NCBI GenBank assembly: GCA_003665825.1
Contig: QPFY01000007.1
Location: 744,001-808,000 of the forward strand
DNA length: 64,000 bases
Source: Microbotryum silenes-acaulis
Taxonomy: Eukaryota; Basidiomycota; Microbotryomycetes; Microbotryales; Microbotryaceae
Direction of reading: 5' to 3'
The translations under genes were made by a program, and so were the position numbers. Shown in pieces: positions 1 to 10,625 of the stretch (the stretch's first letter is position 1; each line of letters begins with the position of its first letter). A model generated the notes under the pieces. The model worked only from the letters and a program-made list of their open reading frames with translations. It was not told the origin of the DNA and searched no databases.

Positions 1-1315
1 GTTCTCGCAGACCGTTGCTGGCCGTGGTCTACGGGCTCGTGCATATCGGATCTCGGGCGCATGCCTGGAAGTCGATCTACTACTTCCTTGGTGTATTGAC
101 GATTATCTTCGCATGCTTCCTCTACGTATTCCTACCCGACTCGCCCGTTTCCGCCAAGTGGCTGACTTCTCGTCAGCGATATGTCGCCGTTGAGCGTGGG
201 TCCGAGCTCGTGCGGCCTCGATGGCCTTGATGAGCTTGCTGACGCTCTTCTTGTGTCCATTCGTCATAGGCTTGCGAGACAATCAAGCCGGGCTGAACTC
301 AAAGCGGTTGAAAGGATCGCATCTACTCGAGGCCGTCTGCGACATCAAGGTCGTTGTTCTCATGCTTGCGACCTTTTGTACTTGCGCATCGGCCGGCGTC
401 ATCGGCGCATTCTCGCCTCTCGTCATCTCGAAGGGTTACGGCGCTGATGCTCTGCGCACGCTGCTATTGCTGATGCCGACGGGGTTGGTCGCTGGATTTT
501 CAAACATCATAGGAGGGTCAGTGCGATTGGTTCAGTCATTCGATCCTTCCAGCTCTGTTGACCTGAACTTCTCGCCTTCACATCCTCAGGTATATCGCGC
601 TCAAATACAAGAACACGCGCATTGCAGTAATCATTTCCCTCTCAATATTGAGCGCAACGGGGACCGCCTTGCAGTGGCGTCTGACTCTGGCGAAGAAGGA
701 GGGGTTGCTGGCCGGAGTGTACCTCATTGTTGCGTCGTCCGGCGCCCTGGGCGGGCTGACGGGCCTGGCTTGTACGTGTCCTCAACTTGCGTGGGTCTTT
801 TGACTCGATGTCACGTTGCTGAAGTGGCTCTACACTGTCTCACACTAGTATCAAATACCGCTGGTGCGACAAAGAAGATCGCTGTCTTCGGTTTAGTTTT
901 CATCTCGATCGCTGGCGCCAACATCGCGACTCGTGAGTGCATTCCAGGAACCCGATCATCATCGTCAGAGACGAGGCTCACGTCCGGTCCCTTCTTATAT
1001 AGCTTTCTTGTTTAAGAAGTCGGAGCAACCGCGGTACCCATTTGCGTTTAAAGCGACCATGATCCTGCAATGCGCTGGCATCGGGCTTTGTGTTGTCTAC
1101 GGGTCAGTCGGGCTTCGTTGGCTGCAGCGCGCGTTTGTTGCTTCTTGGCACCCGACGACGAACCTGAACAAAGTCTTCCAAATTGCAAATCACGCAGTGC
1201 CCTCTGCATCCGCGAAAACCGACGACGAGACCGGAGTGTCGAAAAGCAAGCCCAGGACTTGGCTTTCAGTGATTCGACGGACAAGCAGAACGCCGCCTTT
1301 CGTTACGTTTGGTGA
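1..1315 (+). CDS. MFS anion transporter, Dal5/ACS-like family (5' end outside window)
   Basis: C-terminal part of a major facilitator of the allantoate permease (anion:cation symporter) type, a plasma-membrane importer of small organic anions. Introns at 196-269, 517-589, 772-848, 933-1002 and 1103-1197 join six exons ending at TGA 1313-1315. The spliced protein shows the family signatures FLPDSP and RYVAVER at the middle loop, several hydrophobic helices, NTAGATKK before the penultimate helix, and the usual short tail (DSTDKQNAAFRYVW). The start and the first six helices lie left of the window. It sits tail-to-tail with the next gene and close to two organosulfur monooxygenase genes, so a sulfonate, sulfone or related anion is a reasonable guess for substrate, but the substrate cannot be read from sequence. 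Confidence 0.82.
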
Positions 1316-1464
1316 GAACGATATCATCTTATTCGCATTCAATGCATATTGGCGGACAATCCTCTACTTCCGAAAGACATACGCGACCGGATTCTATAGG
1401 TGTTCTCTTTTGTACTTCTCGTACTAGGCTTATATTGCATGCATTGCAGAACTGCATCCGACTT

Positions 1465-3111
1465 CTATGATGTTTGATCGAGGCCACCCTCCGCCCTGAT
1501 CTTGCTGAGCTCGGCCTCGATCTCTTGAGCCTTCTTTTCATCGTCCGGATTGAAGAGTGCAGAGTACATGAGGTACGCTTCCTCGAGCTACCCAAAGGTC
1601 AAAGTCGCAGTGTCAGTCGAAGCGAATGGATAGGGAGGTACTAGGGCCGGACTGACTTTGCGGTACTGTTCCGTCTTGACGGTAGCGATTTGCTTTTTCG
1701 CCGGAAGACCGGAGTACAACTCGATCGTGCCTCGGAGTTTGGCAATGGCTGCACCGGGGTTCGTCGGAGCAAAGTCAGTGCGTCGGACAGGACGGTCTGG
1801 ACGCATACTTCATACTTAAAAGCTGTACGCACCTTCTTCGCCTCGTCTTTGGGCTTCATTCACTTCTTCCGCGTCGACTGGCAAAGGCTCCACGTCCCCT
1901 TCATTGTCTTCCGTCGCGTCGGGACGATACTTGTCCTCCACGATCTCGATCTCGACACCGAACTGGGCCAGGGCGATGTCACCACGAATGATCGCAAGAT
2001 TGAACCTCCACTGCAGCGCCGTCTCGGCCGTGATCCATGACCCATTGCCGTTGTTGATAGGCTCGAGGGCGGTGTCAAGCGCCGAGCAGACCTTTTCCGA
2101 ATGCGCGAGCTGTGCCAGTGATGCCACTTCTTCCTGACTGGCAACGACAGAGGCAATGGAGCGCAGAATGACGGCTATGAGATCACCACGCTCCTCAAAG
2201 AACACTTCGATTTCTTGAGTATGCTCGCCGTCAAATTTGATGCGAGTTATCAAAGGTAGCAAGTCCCCCACGCCCGATTCCATCAACTCGCGCGCTGCCG
2301 CCTCCTCCTGCTTACTCATGAGGAACGCCGTTCGGTCGGCACTACAGCGGTTGCCATCGGCGAGGACGAGAAGGTGGGAGAGGCTGAAGTCATTGCCCGA
2401 GTCGGCATGCCACCTTATTGCCTCTTCGTACTTCTGACTGGCCAAGGCAAGCCATTCGCCGGGATCCCTCGACTCGCTCGGGTCGAGTTTTCGCCGCTTC
2501 CCCGTCTCTTCAGAGAGGAATTTTGCTTGAGCGAATGTTTTGGCGGCTGGTAGCACGAGCGCATAGTGATGTAGCGACCAGGCTTGGAGATAGTAGAGTT
2601 GCGGCTCGGCTTCGAGCGCGATCGTTTGCTGCTCCTTGTTGACTAGACCGAGTGCTCGCAGTTGATCGTTCGTCAATTCGACCTTCTCGCTGTCCTCCTC
2701 GCCAGCTTGGTCTTCGTTTGAGGCTTTTCCCTTCCCGTTGCCTTCAATCTGTCCTTCTTGAGCCTGCGACGAGTGATGCTTCGGCACCAGCGGTAGCAGG
2801 TCTTGTACGCCGTGGAGGATCCCTCGCAGCAGACCCCTCGCCTCTTCCATCTTGTCCTCGTCTCCTGACGACAGAAGTGCGACCGCCGACGATCTCAATT
2901 CGAAAAGATCGGATACAGAAAGTCGATCGCCGTCCAAGGGCATGGTTCGGACATCGCCGTCCTGCGTCGAGGTCGAGACGTCTCCGGAGCCTGAAGCCGA
3001 TCCTGCAACTGGCGCGGTCGACGAACTGCCAATACCAACTGAAGACGGGTCGAACGCCGCGGTGGCTGTCCTCTTGATCTTTCCAGCAGCTTTGAGTCCT
3101 TTGGGCGGCAT
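1465..3111 (-). CDS. ETT1: Enhancer of translation termination 1 / Nro1-like protein
   Basis: Three exons (3111-1833, 1748-1657, 1587-1465) give 497 residues. The start chosen is the ATG at 3109-3111, giving MPPKGLKAAGKIKR, which matches the short basic N-terminus typical of the Ett1/Nro1 family; an upstream in-frame ATG near 3208 would only add a leader unlike the family. A Ser-rich acidic stretch precedes alpha-helical TPR-like repeats (YLQAWSLHHYALVL, EEAIRWHADSG, LEEAYLMYSALFNPDDE near the end). Known members are nuclear proteins linked to translation termination (yeast) and oxygen sensing through Ofd1 (fission yeast). It stands between the MFS and DszC-like genes and looks unrelated to sulfur metabolism. 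Confidence 0.75.
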
Positions 3112-3385
3112 CGAAATGGTGGTGAATGAATCGTAGGTCGACGCAGAAGCCAGGAGAGCGAGCGCTGCGAAGCCGGCGGCGGCGCGTGAGGCCGTGAGGA
3201 GCCTCCACAAAGTGTACCGCGCCGGGCCCGGAGCAGCCCGGAGAACGCATGGATTTCACGTACCAGAAGCAAGGTAGTAACGTACACAAGTCATTCAAAA
3301 CACACGCCCCAAAGTAAAAATTACAATGACCAAACTCCCCGTCCCAGTCAATTCAGCAATTGTTCTGCCGCACCAACTCGGGAGC

Positions 3386-4973
3386 TCACGTGTACCAAGT
3401 GGGGGTCGCGTACTCTCCGGTCAACACATAGCGCCCCACCTCGGCCTTCTTATGGGCGACGGGGTCGTGCAAGGTATGGGTGCGTACATTGTTGAAGAAG
3501 TGCGCGAACCCAGCTCGGAGTGCGATGCTGCGAGAGCCAAGCGCTTCGTAGATCTTGCTCGTCACCTCGAGCGCAAACTCTGTCGAAGTAACCTTGGCCG
3601 CGGCGATGCGCACGGCGGCGTAGCCCCTTTCGTCCTCCGTGATTTGACGGCTCTCGCGAGCGAGCAATTGGCCGATGATCTCACCGGCTTGGTCAACTTG
3701 GGCCTCGAGGGCCCACAACTTCGCTTGCCACTCGCCATAAAGCGCTTGGATGTAGAACTCTTCGCTACCGGTCTGCTTGGGATCGGCGGCGAACGGCCAG
3801 CCGCGCGTGTTCTTTGCCGTGAACAAGGCGCCCTTCTTCAACGCACCTTGGGCCGTGCCGGTGTAAAAGTTGGTGAATTGAAGCTGGATCGCGGGCAAAA
3901 GAACTGCAAGGGTACTGCGGGCTCAGCAATATGATAGCTCTCGGCTGATCTTGCCTAGAACTCACGGGTGTTCCACGCCCCGAGGGGCACGAAGATCTTT
4001 TCGACGAAGCCGAGTGCCTCGGACCAAGGCAATCGAACATCCGAGATCGTAACTGAGCCGGATTGGGATCCCTGAATTGCGGGAGGGTTGGCTCGCTCAG
4101 TCATCCGCAATTGCTCCGAGGCTGGAAAGGAGGAACGAGTGCAGACGTACCCTCATTCCGAGGACGTCAACCCAGTCATCACCGAACTTGATACCGGGTT
4201 GTTTAGACTCGGCGATGGCAAAGACGTGCGTTTCAGTGCCCTTGAGTACGCCCTCAAGAACGGTGAGATCCGACACTTTCGATCCGGTCGAAAAGGCCTT
4301 CCTGCCGTTAAAAACAATGCTCTTGCCGTCCTCGCTCTCGGTGACAGTGAGATCGGAGTCTCTGCATAAGTTGAATACACAGCGATTCAAATATAAAGGA
4401 AGTCTTTCACATGAATCAGGAGTGAAACGGTGTACTTACCGAGGATTGACAGCGCCTCCCAAAATGAAGCGACCCTCGGTGACCCGCTTGGCCAGCGCAT
4501 CGGCTTGTTCTTGGGTACCAACGACCTGGGCGGTCCACGACCAAAGGTAGCTGTATGCTAGGATCATGCCAACCGAAGAATCACCCCTGGAGATGATGCG
4601 CTGTATCTTGTAGCTCGCCTCGAACGGCAGTCCACCTCCACCATAGCGAGTCGGGCCTAGCGCCGTGACGAGGCCAGCGTCCTTTAGGAGCTGAATTTGC
4701 GCGTAGGGCACCTCGTTTCGATTGTCACGCTGCAGAAGAGAGTAGAAATGTGGTGTTCATCAACTTATATGAACAAAAGGTCCAACGAGCTATATTACGC
4801 ACCTGGGCAACATCCAAACCGAGGAGGTCCGAAACCTCCTCGGCTCGCCTGAGGAAGTCCTCGAGTGAGACAGGTCGGGAAGCAGTGGTGTAATCAGGGT
4901 AGGAGATTTTCGACCCATTGCCGAGCTTGAGACTGTCGAACGATGTAGGAGGTGTATCGACGGCGTGAGGCAT
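3386..4973 (-). CDS. DszC/SfnB/MsuC-type flavin monooxygenase (acyl-CoA dehydrogenase fold)
   Basis: Five exons (4973-4803, 4729-4440, 4361-4151, 4071-3966, 3903-3386) give 431 residues. The fold is that of acyl-CoA dehydrogenase: helical N-terminus, middle region with DSSVGMILAYSYLW, a beta domain (GSVTISDVRLPWSEA) and a C-terminal helical domain. The tail NNVRTHTLHDPVAHKK is the RTHTLHDP signature of the DszC/SfnB/MsuC branch, which uses reduced flavin and oxygen on sulfur compounds rather than dehydrogenating acyl-CoA. Known bacterial relatives oxidise dibenzothiophene (DszC) or methanesulfinate (MsuC), or are needed for growth on dimethyl sulfone (SfnB). It is divergent from the MDR gene at 5740 and near the SfnG-type gene, which argues for a methanesulfinate or sulfone step. 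No clear organelle targeting signal is seen. Confidence 0.8.
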
Positions 4974-5739
4974 GTTGATGGTGATCGTTCTATGAAAGGA
5001 AGAGAGGTTGAGGAAGTGGTGCTCCAACAGAGGCGGGCATGTGAAGGCAAGCGCGCGGAGAAGATGACGAAGCGATTGCGCTATACCGCGCCATGACTCT
5101 TGGAGCAAGTGCCCATTAACCGGGATGGCGCATTTTATCGAGGAAGGGACATCCTGGGAAGTGGGAGGCCTCTTCCAGTCGCTGCTAGTGAGCAGGCTGG
5201 GCGCCGAGGTCACGTGCACTCTTGATCGAAAGTCCAATGTACCTACTACTTACCTTAGCGCGGACAAGTTCAAGCGCTCTTGACAAAATGAAAGCGGGAC
5301 CAGCCTTCACTACTGTAGTCAATTCGGCGGGGGAGCTCTTGCTCGATCACCCTACCGAACCGAATGCCGTGCTCGATCTGACCCGCGGCGCCGCTGTGAC
5401 GTGCGAGCACGTTTGGCGAGATTGCGCAATCAGCCCCTGATTTTCTTAGGCCCACGGCGGATTAGCCGAGCGCCCCGCTGTGAGCGCACAACGCCGCGTC
5501 AAGGCCCCACCTCTCACAGTGAAGTGAAGAGAAAGAGCCAACTGCGCATAGTCAAACTCGGACGGATGCTCACCCGCTCGCCGAGTAGCGATTGCACGAC
5601 TCGACCCTTCAGGCACCACACCTTCCGCGCTTGCTCCGCATCCAAACTCTCTCACCAGTACGCTCGTCAGTCGCTCAGGCGAGCCTTCGCTTCTCGTCTT
5701 CCACCATTCTTGGATACTATCATCTATACCCTTCATAAT
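4974..5739. promoter_or_regulatory. Divergent intergenic region between DszC-like and MDR genes
   Basis: This 766-nt stretch separates two head-to-head genes of the proposed sulfur cluster and must hold both promoters. Open frames here are short and unconvincing. No repeat or well-known operator could be identified by eye. A sulfur-starvation activator of the Cys3/MetR type would be expected to bind here if the cluster is regulated together; that is inference only. Confidence 0.4.
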
Positions 5740-7325
5740 ATGAGCGTCTTTGTCGGCCCGACCGTTCAACAAGCGCTGCTGCTGCACGCGCCTCGGCAGA
5801 GGTACCAGCTCTCGGAGATTGAGGTGCCCACCTTCCATGCCGACGAGGTGTTAATCCGCATCGAAGCCATCGGTCTCAACCCCATCGATCACAAATCGGC
5901 TGACTACGGGTTTGCCCTTCCGGTAAATACCTTACTTACCTGGACACATCCAAGCACTCTTCGCCTGGTACGCGCTCCTGAAGACCCTTAACGATGTTCT
6001 TTGATCTCAGGTGCTTCCCGCCCTGAATGGCCGCGATTTGGCCGGCGTCGTGGTCGGGGTCGGGTCGAACGTTCAAAGGTGGAGATTTGGTGACCTCGTT
6101 TTTGGACCCTCGACGGCCTATCGCGATTACAGGACATCAGCTTTCCAGGAATTTGCGGTTGCCTCGGAACATTGCTTGGGCTCGGTCCCAGTCAAATCGA
6201 GCGTTGAGCAATGCGCTGCCCTTGGTAAGAGATGCTCTCTGCTCCACACTAACCCTTCCAACTCGGAGCCTAACATGCTGTAACATGTTGTAAATTCATC
6301 TCTGGCAGGTGTTGGAGCAGTCGCTGCCGCACTCGCTATTGGCTCCGCACTCGGGATCGCGATCCGCGGGTTCGTGCCTCGCTCCCTCGCCATCGGGGCC
6401 GAAGGCGAGTCTCCTGAGTGGGTCAAGACGACCGGTTCGCCAACTCCAATCAAAGAACCTTCGGCACAGTTTGGTGACTGGATTCTGATCTGGGGAGGTA
6501 AGAGCATCGCGTAAAGGTGGGGACTCGGAACGGGGTGCATGAGCTCACACCTCTTTGACTAATCAGGCTCTACGACATCAGGCTACTTGGCGGCACAGTT
6601 AGCCCAGACAGCAGGATTGAGAGTGATAGCAGTAGCCAACAGAGAGCGGCATGAGGAGCGACTTCGTGCGGTCGGCATCGGTGAGTGTGGTCAGCGCCTT
6701 GCGACTTCGGTCTGGTTAGGAGGCTTGGCTGATCGCCCGTCCCTTTCCTCTTCGCAGAGCACGTCGTAGATCGAGACGACCCTATCGCTGCGGTTGCCAA
6801 GATTCGAGAGATCACAGGTGGTGCACTGCGGTACGCTATCGATTGCGTCGGCAAGACCAGTGCCTCGCACGCTCTGGAAGCTCTGTCCCTGTCAGCAGAC
6901 ACTTATTTGGTCGGCCTCTCGGGTTTACCCAAGACCGCTCGCTCGGGAGTTAGACTTTGTGAAGTCGTCAGTCGGATCAAGTATCAGCTATCTTCAAACA
7001 TGACCATATACTAATGAGAAAACCGATCTCGACCTATACCAGCCAATAAAAACGTTTCACACTAACGCCGCCGTCGGCTCGGGATTGATGCGCCTGCTCG
7101 AGGAGCTGATCGACAACAATGAGTTGGTTTTACCCGCGGTGGAAGTGATTTATGGAGGGCTCGAAGCAGTGAACGTAAGGAGATTGCAATATACACGAGT
7201 GAAAAAGACCGAGCTCGAGTGCTGACAGGTTGCACATACTTTTCACTGCACAGAACGGGCTCGATCGATTGAGAAGAGGCGAGTGTGGATTTGGCCGGAT
7301 AGTAGTTCGCATTTCCCACGCATGA
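5740..7325 (+). CDS. Zinc-less MDR oxidoreductase (ToxD / enoyl-reductase-like)
   Basis: Seven exons (5740-5922, 6011-6224, 6309-6497, 6567-6680, 6758-6966, 7043-7174, 7254-7325) give 370 residues. The start ATG gives MSVFVGPTVQQALLL. Family marks are LNPIDHK in the N-terminal GroES-like domain, NGRDLAGVVVGVG, and the Rossmann turn WGGSTTSGYLAAQLAQ. The catalytic zinc ligands of classical alcohol dehydrogenases (GHE motif) are absent, so this is an NAD(P)H-dependent quinone or enoyl reductase type. It is co-directional with the SfnG-type gene and divergent from the DszC-like gene. Its role could be disposal of an aldehyde or ketone from sulfonate cleavage or redox support; neither can be shown from sequence. 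Confidence 0.8.
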
Positions 7326-7797
7326 ATTTGATATTGTACGATCCCGTTTTTGGCCGACGCTTCCGCGCTGACCCGTGTCACGAAAGCGAAGTAGACCCGC
7401 GGGGAAGCAGAAGCTACTAGTGAGCTGCCAAAAAGTCAATTGCGGGGCTGTGCCTAGATATAGTCCGCTAGATCGTCTCCTGAGACTTTTAATAAAACGT
7501 TTCATTTTCACGACTTTAAAGTGCGCCAAAGTTCAAGATGACGCGAGCGCTAGTGACCGATAGGTCGGTCGACTAGTAGGCCCTCACTGCGCGAGCACGC
7601 CACCGCGCGCCGCCTTGAACAAGTGACGAGAGGGGGCAGTGTCCTGCGCGGCGGTATTGGAGTTTGGGGACCGCGATGCAGACCACCGATCGCGAACCCC
7701 ACAATGCGAGCGATAGTTGCACTCTGTCCTTGTACTTCAAAGGACAGTCTACCCATTCCTCTCGGTGACAATCTCAACACCAACGCTCACGTCCACC
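7326..7797. promoter_or_regulatory. Intergenic region upstream of the SfnG-type gene
   Basis: 472 nt between the MDR stop and the SfnG-type ATG. It should carry the terminator of the first gene and the promoter of the second. No conserved coding sequence, tandem repeat or recognisable regulatory motif was seen. Confidence 0.35.
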
Positions 7798-9593
7798 ATG
7801 CCATCCACCGAAGCCTTTGCCAGCGCTAGAGGTGCCTCGGGCGAAGCGGCCCGGGCTCCACTTCAGTTCGGTTATTGTGAGCCCCACTGCAGTGCAGCGC
7901 GGTTGACTCCCTGATCTACCGAAACCCATTCCTTACCAGTCTCATTCTGCAGGGGTGCCGAACGTTTCGGGAGGTTTGGTCGTCAGCAAGATCGAACAAC
8001 GCACCGATTGGTCCCCCGAGTACAACGTGAGTGACAACATTGGACATACCTCCCACGTCACTTTCCGATCGTTTGGACCGACAGGCTTTAGCTGCCTTTC
8101 ATCATCATTCCTGAGCTCACCCATTTGGCACCAACCGTACCAGGTCAAATTGGCACAAATTGCCGAAAGTGTCGGCTTCTCCCACGCTTTAACGCAAATT
8201 CGCTTCATGGGTGGTTATGGTGCCGAGTTCCAGCATGAAAGCGCCTCGTTCTCGCAGCACTTACTGGCCCACACGACCAAGCTCAAACTCATCATCGCTA
8301 TCTTACCTGGACCCTGGTAAGTCCTGTATATCTGACCTCTGGAGTTTCGACTTGACAATCCGCGAGACCTCGCTGACAAGGCCTCTTCGTCCTCGCCCAC
8401 TTCTTTAGGAACCCCACACTGGCAGCGAAGCAACTCGCTTCGATCGACCATTATTCAAATGGTCGTGTGGCCGTCAACATCGTCTCCGGCTGGTTCAAGG
8501 GCGAGTTCCAAGCGATCAACGAACCGTGGCTCGATCATGGAGAGCGCTACAGACGGTCAGAAGAGTTCATCAAGGTCTTGCGCGGGATCTGGACGGCACC
8601 GGAGAGTTTCAGTAAGTCGAGGTCTAGCCACGTTGTTTAAGTCCCACATCGTTTTTTTACTGAACTTTCAACCGCCATGTCCTGAATTCCGGTAGCTTTT
8701 CATGGCAACTTTTATCAGTGTGAGTGCGCTTTGCGCTTGTCTGATGGCAACGTGTTAGATAAGAGAGCCTGCAACATTCGCTGACTCTCATCTTCCTTTG
8801 CTGCCCATCACCGGCCAAAAAGACAATAACTACCCTCTCCGACCGCAACCCATTCAAAAGAACGGTCCCGAGATTTTTCAAGGCGGCAACTCTGCTGATG
8901 CACGCGGTATGGCCGCCCGAGTTTCGGACCTCTTGCTCCTGAACGGTCAAAAGACGATCGCCGATATCCGCGAGTTGATCGACGATACCAAGGAACGTGC
9001 CGTCAAGGAAGGTCGAGCAGGTCAGGTCCGTCTAGGCGTCAATGCGTTCGTCATCGTGCGCGAGACGGAGGAGGAGGCTTTGGCGGTGTGGAGGGAGATT
9101 GTGGGCAAGGCCGATACCGAGGCGGTACAGGGGTTTCTTCAGCAGGCTAAGAATGCGGGCGCTTCGGCTTCGGATAAGAAGGGTATGTGGGCCAATAGCG
9201 ATGTTAATGATTTGGTTCAGTACAATGATGGTTTCAGTGAGTCGTTGGCAATATTTTTCCGATAGTACAGACGACAAAACTCACCAGCCCCTGAACTTCT
9301 CCTTCTGCAGAGACCAAATTGATCGGTACCGCTCGACAAGTCGCCGATCGAATCCTCCTATTCCGGTCGCTCGGGATCGACTTTGTCTTGACCGCATTCT
9401 TGCACTTCCAAGAGGGTGAGTCTTTAGCACTGAAGAGCCTCCAAAATCACCTCTCAACTCCATTGCCATCTTCCATACAGAAATTGAAGCGTTCGGACGC
9501 GGCGTGATGCCTCTCGTGCGACAGGGCGAATCAGAAGGGCGTGGGCTCGATGCCGAGAAGGAGATTGCGATCTCGGGCCACATCTACCAATGA
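7798..9593 (+). CDS. sfnG-like: SfnG-type FMNH2-dependent (dimethyl) sulfone monooxygenase
   Basis: Eight exons (7798-7876, 7953-8026, 8144-8316, 8409-8611, 8696-8719, 8823-9236, 9311-9415, 9481-9593) give 394 residues of a luciferase-like (SsuD/LLM) TIM barrel. The junction at 7876/7953 restores FGYWVPNVSGGLVVS, and later blocks GFSHALTQIRFMGGYGAE, ILPGPWNPTLAAKQLA, VNIVSGWFKGEF, EIFQGGNS and DLVQYNDGFKTKLIG follow the bacterial dimethyl sulfone monooxygenase SfnG closely and along its whole length. The family uses reduced FMN and oxygen to cleave dimethyl sulfone to methanesulfinate and formaldehyde. Relatives such as SsuD act on alkanesulfonates, so substrate is not certain. Only 49 nt separate its stop from the convergent LIP2 stop. 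Seven introns with normal local splice sites show long residence in a eukaryotic genome. Confidence 0.9.
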
Positions 9594-9642: not shown

Positions 9643-10625
9643 CTAGGCTGCCAGCTTTTTCTCCCCCAAGTCTTTGAGAGGCGGTAGTTTGCCCTTGACG
9701 CCATCGTCAATCATCTTTCTCAGTTCGACAAACTCGTCACCTTCCTTGAGTTCCTCGATCCCTCGACCGTACTGCTTGCCAAATTCCTTGGCAGCTGTTG
9801 GGACTAGATCCTCGACTTTTACATCGTAGTTCTTTGACTTGAGTTTGGAAAGTTCAGCTTGTGCGGAAGTGGCCTTGACGTCGTCGAGTCCACACGCGAC
9901 GATCATGTCGAACCAGCGCCGAGTCTGTTCTTCGACGTTGATTGCGAAGCCGTGAAGAGAGATGCGGTGTCGCATGTGGATGCCGATGGAGCCTATTTTG
10001 AGAGTGGGGGAGGTGAAGACGCCGGTGTGTTCGAGTGGGTAGACGGGTACTCCGAGCGAGCGAGCGAGCGTTTCGAGGTATCTTTCGAGGTGGTCGACGT
10101 AACATCTTGTCGAGAGCTGGGGTCGGATGCCAGGGGGAGGGTCAGTCAACGTGTCATGAGCCGGATCGGAGGAGCGCACGTTTGCTGACTCACATCACTA
10201 GCGACGAGGTCCATCAATGAATAGCCGACCAACTGCCCTGGCCCATGGTAGGTCGTTTGCCCTCCCCTCATCGTACTAACATAGTCCGCCCCCTGTTTCG
10301 TCAGCCTCTCCCCCTCTATCCTCAACGCTTCAGGGTCCGTTTCCCTCCTTCCAGCGGTGAAAACGGGCTTGTGCTGCAACAACAACAACACATCGGTATG
10401 GGCGATCCTTTCGAGTGCGGCTCGGTCCGAAGAGGTGTAATTGGCTTCGGCGAGGCGAGATTTGGCGGCCCAGCGCGAGGCGACGATGGACTCCTGCAGG
10501 AGCAGCCCGAGCGAGTAGGGTAGTGGGTCGGGGAGGTAGGTCCATCGGATCGGGGTGAGCGCTTGACGGGCAGAGGAGGCGAGGGTCCGGGTTGATGAAG
10601 AACAGACTGTTGCTGCTGCTGCCAT
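9643..10625 (-). CDS. LIP2: Octanoyl-[acyl-carrier-protein]:protein octanoyltransferase (LipB/Lip2)
   Basis: Two exons (10625-10194 and 10116-9643) give 301 residues. The LipB signature RGGQTTYHGPGQLVGY is intact, as is the block KIGSIGIHMRHRISLHGFA carrying the catalytic lysine and ACG with the catalytic cysteine (VACGLDDVKATS). The enzyme moves octanoyl groups from mitochondrial ACP to lipoyl-dependent proteins such as glycine cleavage H protein. The N-terminus (MAAAATVCSSSTRTLASSAR) is Ser/Ala/Arg-rich and fits a mitochondrial presequence. A longer in-frame start at 10739 exists but its added residues are not typical. The gene diverges from the CCCH gene over 271 nt. Confidence 0.92.

What the first reader, a model, noticed from the sequence alone, without database searches (positions are those of the whole stretch)
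1..9593. Small eukaryotic gene cluster for organosulfur scavenging
Within 9.6 kb lie an ACS-type MFS transporter, a DszC/SfnB/MsuC-type monooxygenase, a zinc-less MDR oxidoreductase and an SfnG-type monooxygenase. In bacteria SfnG makes methanesulfinate from dimethyl sulfone, and MsuC/MsuD carry it to sulfite. Two of these enzyme types side by side with a transporter in an intron-rich genome suggest a fungal pathway for dimethyl sulfone or related compounds. The ETT1 gene breaks the cluster. The families are read from sequence; the pathway is inference.
Basis: partly seen in the sequence, partly recalled or inferred. Interest (0 to 1): 0.85.

Follow-up and report, generated by a model that had tools for sequence, protein, structure and literature searches.

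The report
Fungal gene cluster for sulfone scavenging
A plant-infecting fungus carries, side by side, a gene for an enzyme that bacteria use to pull sulfur out of dimethyl sulfone and two partner oxidation-reduction genes; the same small group recurs in related fungi, so fungi probably have their own dimethyl sulfone pathway, which has not been tested in the laboratory.

Summary
The window lies in a 29.9 Mb genome very close to the anther smut Microbotryum lychnidis-dioicae. It carries intact, intron-containing genes for an MFS transporter (starting 1.2 kb left of the window), a DszC/SfnB-superfamily monooxygenase, a zinc-less MDR reductase and SfnG. The core (SfnG, MDR, DszC-like) is a conserved fungal cluster: where two of the genes are listed for one strain or species, they share a contig (SfnG-MDR 12 of 12, MDR-DszC 8 of 8, SfnG-DszC 6 of 6), often with consecutive locus tags. 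A published Exophiala table suggests the pair in Ascomycota. SfnG clears the NCBIfam equivalog cut-off. The DszC-like protein meets neither the DszC nor the SfnB cut-off and may act before SfnG (DMS/DMSO oxidation) or after it (sulfinate oxidation). No MsuD-like gene was found; unlinked TauD-type dioxygenases could do the last step. The MDR, not found in any of 80 bacterial sfnG loci, is the unexplained partner. In this Microbotryum the DszC-like protein looks altered (His117 to Ser; 12 of 131 near-invariant positions changed) and no named Microbotryum is among its 120 listed hits. The pathway is inference, the transporter's membership untested, the 'ETT1' label unconfirmed.

The parts
1..1315 (+). 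MFS transporter (Dal5/allantoate-permease-like by recalled motifs); the gene starts at window -1243 (L005:8657); exons inside the window 11-195, 270-516, 590-771, 849-932, 1003-1102, 1198-1315
   Evidence: spliced model, 12 exons, 521 aa; PF07690 81.3 bits; TIGR00893 161.3 bits, under its cut-off of 395. Membership in the cluster not tested in relatives.
1822..3111 (-).
   Evidence: open frame; label not confirmed
3386..4973 (-). DszC/SfnB/MsuC-superfamily (acyl-CoA dehydrogenase fold) monooxygenase; exons 4803-4973, 4440-4729, 4151-4361, 3966-4071, 3386-3903
   Evidence: corrected model 431 aa; NF043015 201.1 bits, TIGR04022 183.6 bits, both under cut-off; PDB relatives 8cda, TdsC, DszC, MsuC
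4974..5739 (.). shared divergent promoter region between the DszC-like gene and the MDR; one CACGTG at 5211
   Evidence: 11 CACGTG in the 64 kb window, 1 in these 766 bp; suggestive only
5740..7325 (+). zinc-less MDR oxidoreductase; exons 5740-5922, 6011-6224, 6309-6497, 6567-6680, 6758-6966, 7043-7174, 7254-7325
   Evidence: 370 aa, 98% to M. lychnidis-dioicae MVLG_00405; best PDB chain by sequence 3b6z LovC; tree of relatives
7798..9593 (+). SfnG, FMNH2-dependent dimethyl sulfone monooxygenase; exons 7798-7876, 7953-8026, 8144-8316, 8409-8611, 8696-8719, 8823-9236, 9311-9415, 9481-9593
   Evidence: TIGR04021 531.7 bits, cut-off 382.95; PDB 8t0u E 1.1e-141; 98% to M. lychnidis-dioicae

Best explanation
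It is a small, conserved fungal cluster for using small organosulfur compounds (dimethyl sulfone, and probably DMSO/DMS) as a sulfur source. Supported by family membership: SfnG uses FMNH2 and O2 to cleave one C-S bond of dimethyl sulfone, giving methanesulfinate and formaldehyde. Inferred: the DszC-like flavin monooxygenase does a neighbouring S-oxygenation, either DMS/DMSO to dimethyl sulfone (as Acinetobacter group D enzymes do) or methanesulfinate to methanesulfonate (as MsuC does). Inferred: methanesulfinate or methanesulfonate goes to sulfite through unlinked TauD/Jlp1-type dioxygenases and then to sulfite reductase. Inferred and open: the NAD(P)H-type MDR supplies reducing power or processes a product. 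The MFS gene may import a substrate. In Microbotryum itself the DszC-like step may be altered or on its way out.
For: SfnG equivalog hit; 58-63% identity to Pseudomonas SfnG in the hits seen; strong match to the solved bacterial SfnG 8t0u; an HxxRY block at H152/R155/Y156 has the spacing of the MsuD flavin-site residues H123/R126/Y127 (passage in PMC8234197). Linkage: SfnG-MDR on one contig in 12 of 12 taxa with both listed, MDR-DszC 8 of 8, SfnG-DszC 6 of 6. Four gene models join parts of the MDR to SfnG: P0008, P0036, P0097, P0101. Exophiala spinifera: SfnG KIW15895/g9837 and DszC-like KIW15893/9836 (PMC11778650 Table 1). Bacterial relatives of the DszC-like protein sit beside SfnB and LLM monooxygenases in the two Rhizobium plasmids looked at; 54 of 80 bacterial sfnG loci carry a DszC-superfamily match within the fetched flanks of up to 8 kb. 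TauD-family and NIR_SIR matches elsewhere in this genome. Candida parapsilosis grows on DMSO as sole sulfur source, and four FMNH2-dependent monooxygenase genes there depend on Met4 under sulfur starvation (PMC11502921, passages).
Against: I have no expression, growth or enzyme data. The DszC-like protein passes no subfamily cut-off. In the window's species His117 is Ser where 118 of 120 homologues have His, and 12 of 131 near-invariant positions are changed against 1-8 in eleven relatives. No DszC-like protein of the four named Microbotryum species is among the 120 listed, and only 5 of 13 Microbotryomycetes with SfnG listed show one. Most ascomycetes among the SfnG hits have no MDR in the 58-hit list. 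No FMN_red-type reductase was found in the genome. The CACGTG evidence is weak. Candida albicans mutants in sox and fmo monooxygenase genes still used taurine; only jlp12 did not (PMC13170222, passage).
Confidence: 0.72

Rival explanations
1. The cluster is real but serves larger sulfones or cyclic sulfides (dibenzothiophene-like), as a fungal analogue of the 4S pathway: the DszC-like enzyme oxidises the sulfide to the sulfone and SfnG opens it.
For: DszC/TdsC are among the nearest solved structures of the DszC-like protein. PMC5857272 (section 4) cites Rhodosporidium toruloides, a basidiomycete yeast, using DBT as sulfur source; Exophiala spinifera uses DBT and has neighbouring SfnG and DszC-like gene numbers.
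Against: SfnG is at equivalog level for the dimethyl sulfone enzyme and far from DszA (5tlc E 2.2e-7 against 8t0u E 1.1e-141); the DszC model is at 201.1 of 850 bits.
Confidence: 0.12
2. Only the SfnG-MDR pair is the functional unit; the DszC-like gene and the transporter are loosely attached neighbours, and in Microbotryum the DszC-like gene is decaying.
For: MDR is on the SfnG contig in 11 of 13 Microbotryomycetes with SfnG listed, the DszC-like gene in 5 of 13. MDR-SfnG linkage reaches Ascomycota (Pseudovirgaria same contig; a Phyllosticta joined model). The window's DszC-like protein has changed conserved positions.
Against: The order SfnG-MDR-DszC is kept in the two taxa where all three carry tags (JL201, S. 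carnicolor), and neighbouring numbers recur in Exophiala. The window's gene is still a full open frame with four GT-AG introns.
Confidence: 0.2
3. Ordinary neighbouring genes without shared function: an abundant MFS family, an abundant MDR family and two monooxygenases that met by chance.
For: MFS and MDR genes are common in fungi (recalled); an unassigned gene separates the transporter from the rest.
Against: Repeated linkage in Microbotryomycetes, and single cases in Sistotremastrum and ascomycetes; the MDRs of these fungi form one supported group (98/95).
Confidence: 0.05

Closest known systems
Pseudomonas/Acinetobacter dimethyl sulfone pathway (SfnG, MsuC, MsuD with FMN reductase MsuE or SfnF)
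   Same: SfnG at equivalog level; a DszC-superfamily match near sfnG in 54 of 80 bacterial loci
   Different: The fungal DszC-like protein is only about 21-33% identical to those linked bacterial ones and nearer to actinobacterial proteins (about 50-53%). No MsuD and no FMN reductase in the cluster; an MDR instead, matched in 0 of 80 bacterial loci at E 1e-8; introns; no operon.
Fungal sulfonate scavenging: Jlp1 dioxygenase with a co-localised transporter in Basidiomycota and Eurotiomycetes (PMC5303821, passages)
   Same: Small clustered sulfur-scavenging genes in fungi, with a transporter that may be of the same broad MFS family
   Different: Flavin-dependent chemistry, sulfone/sulfoxide rather than sulfonate substrates, another enzyme set; TauD-family genes lie elsewhere in this genome.
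FMNH2-dependent monooxygenases (PF00296) of sulfur-starved Candida parapsilosis (PMC11502921, passages)
   Same: PF00296 family, induced by sulfur limitation
   Different: Not shown to be SfnG orthologues or clustered with an MDR in the passages I saw; no substrate assigned there.
Exophiala spinifera FM 'DszA/DszC' candidates (PMC11778650, Table 1)
   Same: An SfnG-annotated and a DszC-like gene with neighbouring gene and accession numbers (g9837/9836; KIW15895/KIW15893)
   Different: Listed there as dibenzothiophene genes; the section and passages I read do not comment on their adjacency or on what lies between the two accessions (the word 'adjacent' does not occur).

Membership tests
SfnG (dimethyl sulfone monooxygenase, TIGR04021) | Score over the curated equivalog cut-off across the full profile | tested here: met
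   531.7 bits against 382.95; profile 1-349 of 350
SfnG (dimethyl sulfone monooxygenase, TIGR04021) | Turnover of dimethyl sulfone to methanesulfinate with FMNH2 | not testable with these tools
   needs purified enzyme
DszC (NF043015) | Equivalog cut-off | tested here: not met
   201.1 of 850 bits
SfnB (TIGR04022) | Equivalog cut-off | tested here: not met
   183.6 of 430.9 bits
MsuC (methanesulfinate monooxygenase) | Closest to MsuC among relatives with solved structures | tested here: not met
   MsuC 6u76 156.4 bits; 8cda 175.3, TdsC 166.9, DszC about 165 (first model): no preference for MsuC
DszC/MsuC/SfnB superfamily (group D flavin monooxygenase) | Near full-length similarity to solved members and the conserved RTH(S/T)LHDP block | tested here: met
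   E 9e-45 to 2e-50 for the six best chains; RTHTLHDP at 400-407
DszC/MsuC/SfnB superfamily (group D flavin monooxygenase) | His in the YHYLW block (aligned to a His in the DszC, TdsC and 8cda chains) | tested here: not met
   Ser117; His in 118 of 120 homologues; alignments. That this His is catalytic in DszC is recalled; the paper search for it found nothing
Zinc-dependent MDR | Catalytic zinc ligands | tested here: not met
   GLNPID/GRD in the alignment; zinc motif recalled
Soa1/AstA sulfonate transporter group | Phylogenetic placement with Soa1 | not tested
   no Soa1 sequence in hand and no protein search left; only PF07690 and below-cut-off TIGR00893
Conserved gene cluster | Linkage kept in other species | tested here: met

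The most novel reading that the evidence does not exclude
The zinc-less MDR is a dedicated redox partner of fungal SfnG: a new type of flavin-reducing or product-processing component that replaced the bacterial SfnF/MsuE reductase when fungi assembled their own sulfone cluster from a proteobacterial-like SfnG, an actinobacterial-like S-oxygenase and a fungal MDR. The set then also passed between basidiomycete classes.
Probability: 0.15. Interest if true: 0.75.

Novelty: new variant of a known kind. Interest (0 to 1): 0.52.

Why it matters
In 2018 PMC5857272 stated (section 4) that fungal FMNH2-dependent monooxygenases had yet to be characterised by genetic or biochemical means and that the sulfinate step had not been demonstrated in fungi; in 2024 PMC11502921 called the fungal pathways for organic sulfur unknown (passage). 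A conserved three-gene cluster with an equivalog-level SfnG gives a concrete, testable gene set in yeasts such as Sporobolomyces for how fungi may take sulfur from dimethyl sulfone and DMSO, compounds of the global sulfur cycle. It also singles out an unexplained partner, the MDR.

Tried and rejected
Bacterial operon transferred whole: not supported. In a tree of 75 chosen rows SfnG of fungi stands opposite the Pseudomonadota rows, the DszC-like protein's best bacterial hits are Actinobacteria, and the MDR has no match in 80 of 80 bacterial sfnG loci at E 1e-8 (these are the best 80 of 370 loci, and a generic MDR could be missed at that threshold). The trees are unrooted, so direction of transfer is not shown.

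Transfer of the cluster into Sistotremastrum (Agaricomycetes): SfnG nests inside Microbotryomycetes (99/94), but the DszC tree does not force it (one Microbotryomycetes group not rejected, p-AU 0.577) and the S. suecicum MDR falls outside them. Left open; contamination was not excluded.

MFS as a broken gene: rejected; it reads through with 12 exons.

The first DszC-like model (439 aa, used) had a wrong acceptor that left an 8-residue insert; corrected to 431 aa and used.

Branch lengths as proof of decay: weaker than they look. SfnG and MDR have close Microbotryum relatives in their trees and the DszC-like protein has none. Adding the Microbotryum stems by hand gives about 0.21 for SfnG, 0.27 for MDR and 0.46 for the DszC-like protein.

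Sulfur-regulator motifs: one CACGTG in the divergent promoter and one upstream of the MFS; no TGTGGC and no ATGRYRYCAT site in the four regions scanned. Too weak to use. A paper search for the DszC histidine found nothing.

FMN reductase: no PF03358 match in the genome, two PF01613 matches elsewhere. These searches go exon by exon and may miss genes cut by introns.

Fungal DNA context: relatives' contigs could not be fetched, so linkage rests on contig lengths and locus tags. Not counted because partner genes came from different strains or species: S. salmonicolor DszC (JCM21900) against SfnG (JCM1841), S. johnsonii DszC (JCM5296) against MDR (JCM1840), S. pararoseus JCM5350 MDR, S. suecicum MDR against S. 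niveocremeum. Lists stop at 120 of 5743 and 1556 hits; one search gave 58.

One search was a script that failed on a file format and was rewritten.
Full report
WHAT IS THERE. The window is bases 744001-808000 of contig C7 of a 29.85 Mb, 88-contig genome. Its SfnG and MDR proteins are 98% identical to those of Microbotryum lychnidis-dioicae, so it is a Microbotryum or something very near it. Splicing gave four intact genes: an MFS transporter that begins 1.2 kb left of the window (L005), a DszC-superfamily monooxygenase on the minus strand, and, divergent from it, an MDR oxidoreductase followed by SfnG. M. lychnidis-dioicae entries of the same length support the SfnG and MDR models.

FAMILY TESTS. 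SfnG scores 531.7 bits on the equivalog model TIGR04021 (cut-off 382.95) and matches the solved bacterial enzyme 8t0u at E 1.1e-141. The DszC-like protein fails the DszC and SfnB cut-offs, as do the other members of its group that I scanned (P0124, P0130, P0125); among solved structures it is about equally far from 8cda, TdsC, DszC and MsuC. The MDR matches Pfam ADH_N and ADH_zinc_N, is closest by sequence to LovC among solved chains, and lacks zinc ligands in the alignment. The transporter is only MFS_1 by Pfam; its Dal5-type label is from recalled motifs.

CONSERVED LINKAGE. SfnG and MDR: same contig in 12 of 12 taxa where both are listed, tag distance 0-2 in the seven with two tags (0 is one joined model). 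MDR and DszC-like: 8 of 8, distance 1 in the five with two tags. SfnG and DszC-like: 6 of 6, distance 2 in the four with two tags. All three are consecutive in Microbotryomycetes sp. JL201 (002300/1/2) and Sporobolomyces carnicolor (005426/7/8). Of 13 Microbotryomycetes with SfnG listed, 11 have the MDR and 5 the DszC-like gene on the contig; M. silenes-dioicae and Leucosporidium lack a listed MDR, and all four named Microbotryum lack a listed DszC-like protein. Four proteins carry parts of the MDR and SfnG in one model (P0008, P0036, P0097, P0101); P0008 looks like a gene-prediction merge because pieces of both genes are missing. In Ascomycota the evidence is thinner: Pseudovirgaria has SfnG and MDR on one contig, P0097 is Phyllosticta, and Table 1 of PMC11778650 lists the Exophiala spinifera SfnG (g9837, KIW15895) and DszC-like gene (9836, KIW15893) with neighbouring numbers. 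Most ascomycetes among the SfnG hits have no MDR in the list.

ORIGIN. In a tree of 75 chosen rows fungal SfnG lies on one side of a fully supported branch and Pseudomonadota on the other (unrooted). Sistotremastrum SfnG nests in Microbotryomycetes and Mycena maculata SfnG nests in Ascomycota, which suggests transfers between fungi, but the DszC and MDR trees do not repeat the Sistotremastrum nesting. The DszC-like proteins of Microbotryomycetes, Sistotremastrum and Athelia form one supported group (100/99) apart from Actinobacteria and Ustilaginomycotina. Of the best 80 of 370 bacterial sfnG loci, 54 carry a DszC-superfamily match within flanks of up to 8 kb (about 21-33% identical to the fungal protein), 0 match the MDR at E 1e-8, and 1 has a weak MFS match. 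The fungal cluster therefore looks assembled in fungi rather than taken over whole.

HOW IT LIKELY WORKS. By family, SfnG turns dimethyl sulfone into methanesulfinate with FMNH2 and O2 (bacterial chemistry: PMC13352529, abstract, introduction, section 22 and passages; PMC8234197, passages). In Acinetobacter, group D enzymes oxidise DMS to DMSO and on to dimethyl sulfone, and MsuC, a relative of the DszC-like protein, oxidises the sulfinate, so the DszC-like enzyme may act on either side. No MsuD/SsuD was found; the only other PF00296 place is on contig C25 beside an AMP-binding enzyme. Six TauD-family places (five over the cut-off; one of them matched solved taurine dioxygenases) and two NIR_SIR places exist in the genome, so sulfite could be made and used. 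FMN reductases: no PF03358 match, two PF01613 matches, none near the cluster. The MDR's role is open. Growth on DMSO as sole sulfur source, and Met4-dependent induction of PF00296 genes, are in print for Candida parapsilosis (PMC11502921, passages). In Candida albicans mutants in sox and fmo monooxygenase genes still used taurine and only jlp12 did not (PMC13170222, passage), which fits dioxygenases doing the sulfonate step and says nothing for a monooxygenase there.

AGAINST. In the window's own DszC-like protein 12 of 131 positions conserved in at least 114 of 120 homologues are changed, against 1-8 in eleven relatives checked; His117, present in 118 of 120 and aligned to a His in solved DszC, TdsC and 8cda, is Ser. 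P0121, an unnamed metagenome protein and the most similar listed hit, also has Ser there. Its branch is 0.46 (median 0.19, not flagged as long). A fairer comparison, adding the Microbotryum stems by hand, is about 0.21 for SfnG, 0.27 for MDR and 0.46 for the DszC-like protein. Together with its absence from the listed hits of named Microbotryum, this suggests changed or relaxed function in this lineage, without proving it: the frame is open, and a mis-annotated or fragmentary relative outside the search's length limits would not be listed.

PRIOR ART. In the listings of my paper searches (several capped at 8-20 rows of many) and in the papers opened I saw none that describes this cluster. What I saw: PMC5857272 abstract and section 4; PMC13352529 abstract, introduction, section 22 and passages; PMC5303821, PMC11502921, PMC13170222, PMC8234197 and PMC10218983 passages; PMC11778650 section 5 and passages. 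Linder 2012, cited in these for fungal FMNH2-dependent monooxygenases, is not held and may contain more than I know. Fungal sulfur clusters as such are not new (Jlp1 with a transporter, PMC5303821). Hence: new variant of a known kind, moderately interesting, directly testable.

Noticed in passing
G000:C25:36442-37356 (L007:4874-5884): The only other luciferase-like (PF00296) place found in the genome, one long exon, beside an AMP-binding enzyme; it looks NtaA/SnaA-like (impression, not tested against a subfamily).
   Followed up: partly
L005:2964-4598 (C7, roughly 4-6 kb left of the transporter gene): ORF pieces with a GIDLG motif and a CxxC-like...RDxxAxxN block; weak Cas12f1-like_TNB match (E 0.0081, under cut-off), possibly a Fanzor/TnpB-like element (recalled resemblance).
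   Followed up: partly
P0006, P0125 (Sistotremastrum niveocremeum, contig 971009): An agaricomycete with SfnG and the DszC-like gene on one contig; its SfnG sits inside Microbotryomycetes (99/94), the other genes do not clearly do so.
   Followed up: partly
P0104 (Mycena maculata): Its SfnG nests among Ascomycota, another apparent transfer between fungal phyla.
   Followed up: no
P0008 (Sporobolomyces salmonicolor): The SfnG part groups with Meredithblackwellia (97/79) while its MDR part groups with Sporobolomyces and Rhodotorula (99/98).
   Followed up: no
G000:C4:1152518-1153165 and C4:1163030-1163440: A flavin-reductase-family place and a TauD-family place lie about 10 kb apart; possibly a second sulfur locus.
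   Followed up: no
window 9643-10194, minus strand: Lipoyl ligase/transferase-like ORF next to SfnG (PF21948 24.6 bits, just under the cut-off of 27).
   Followed up: no
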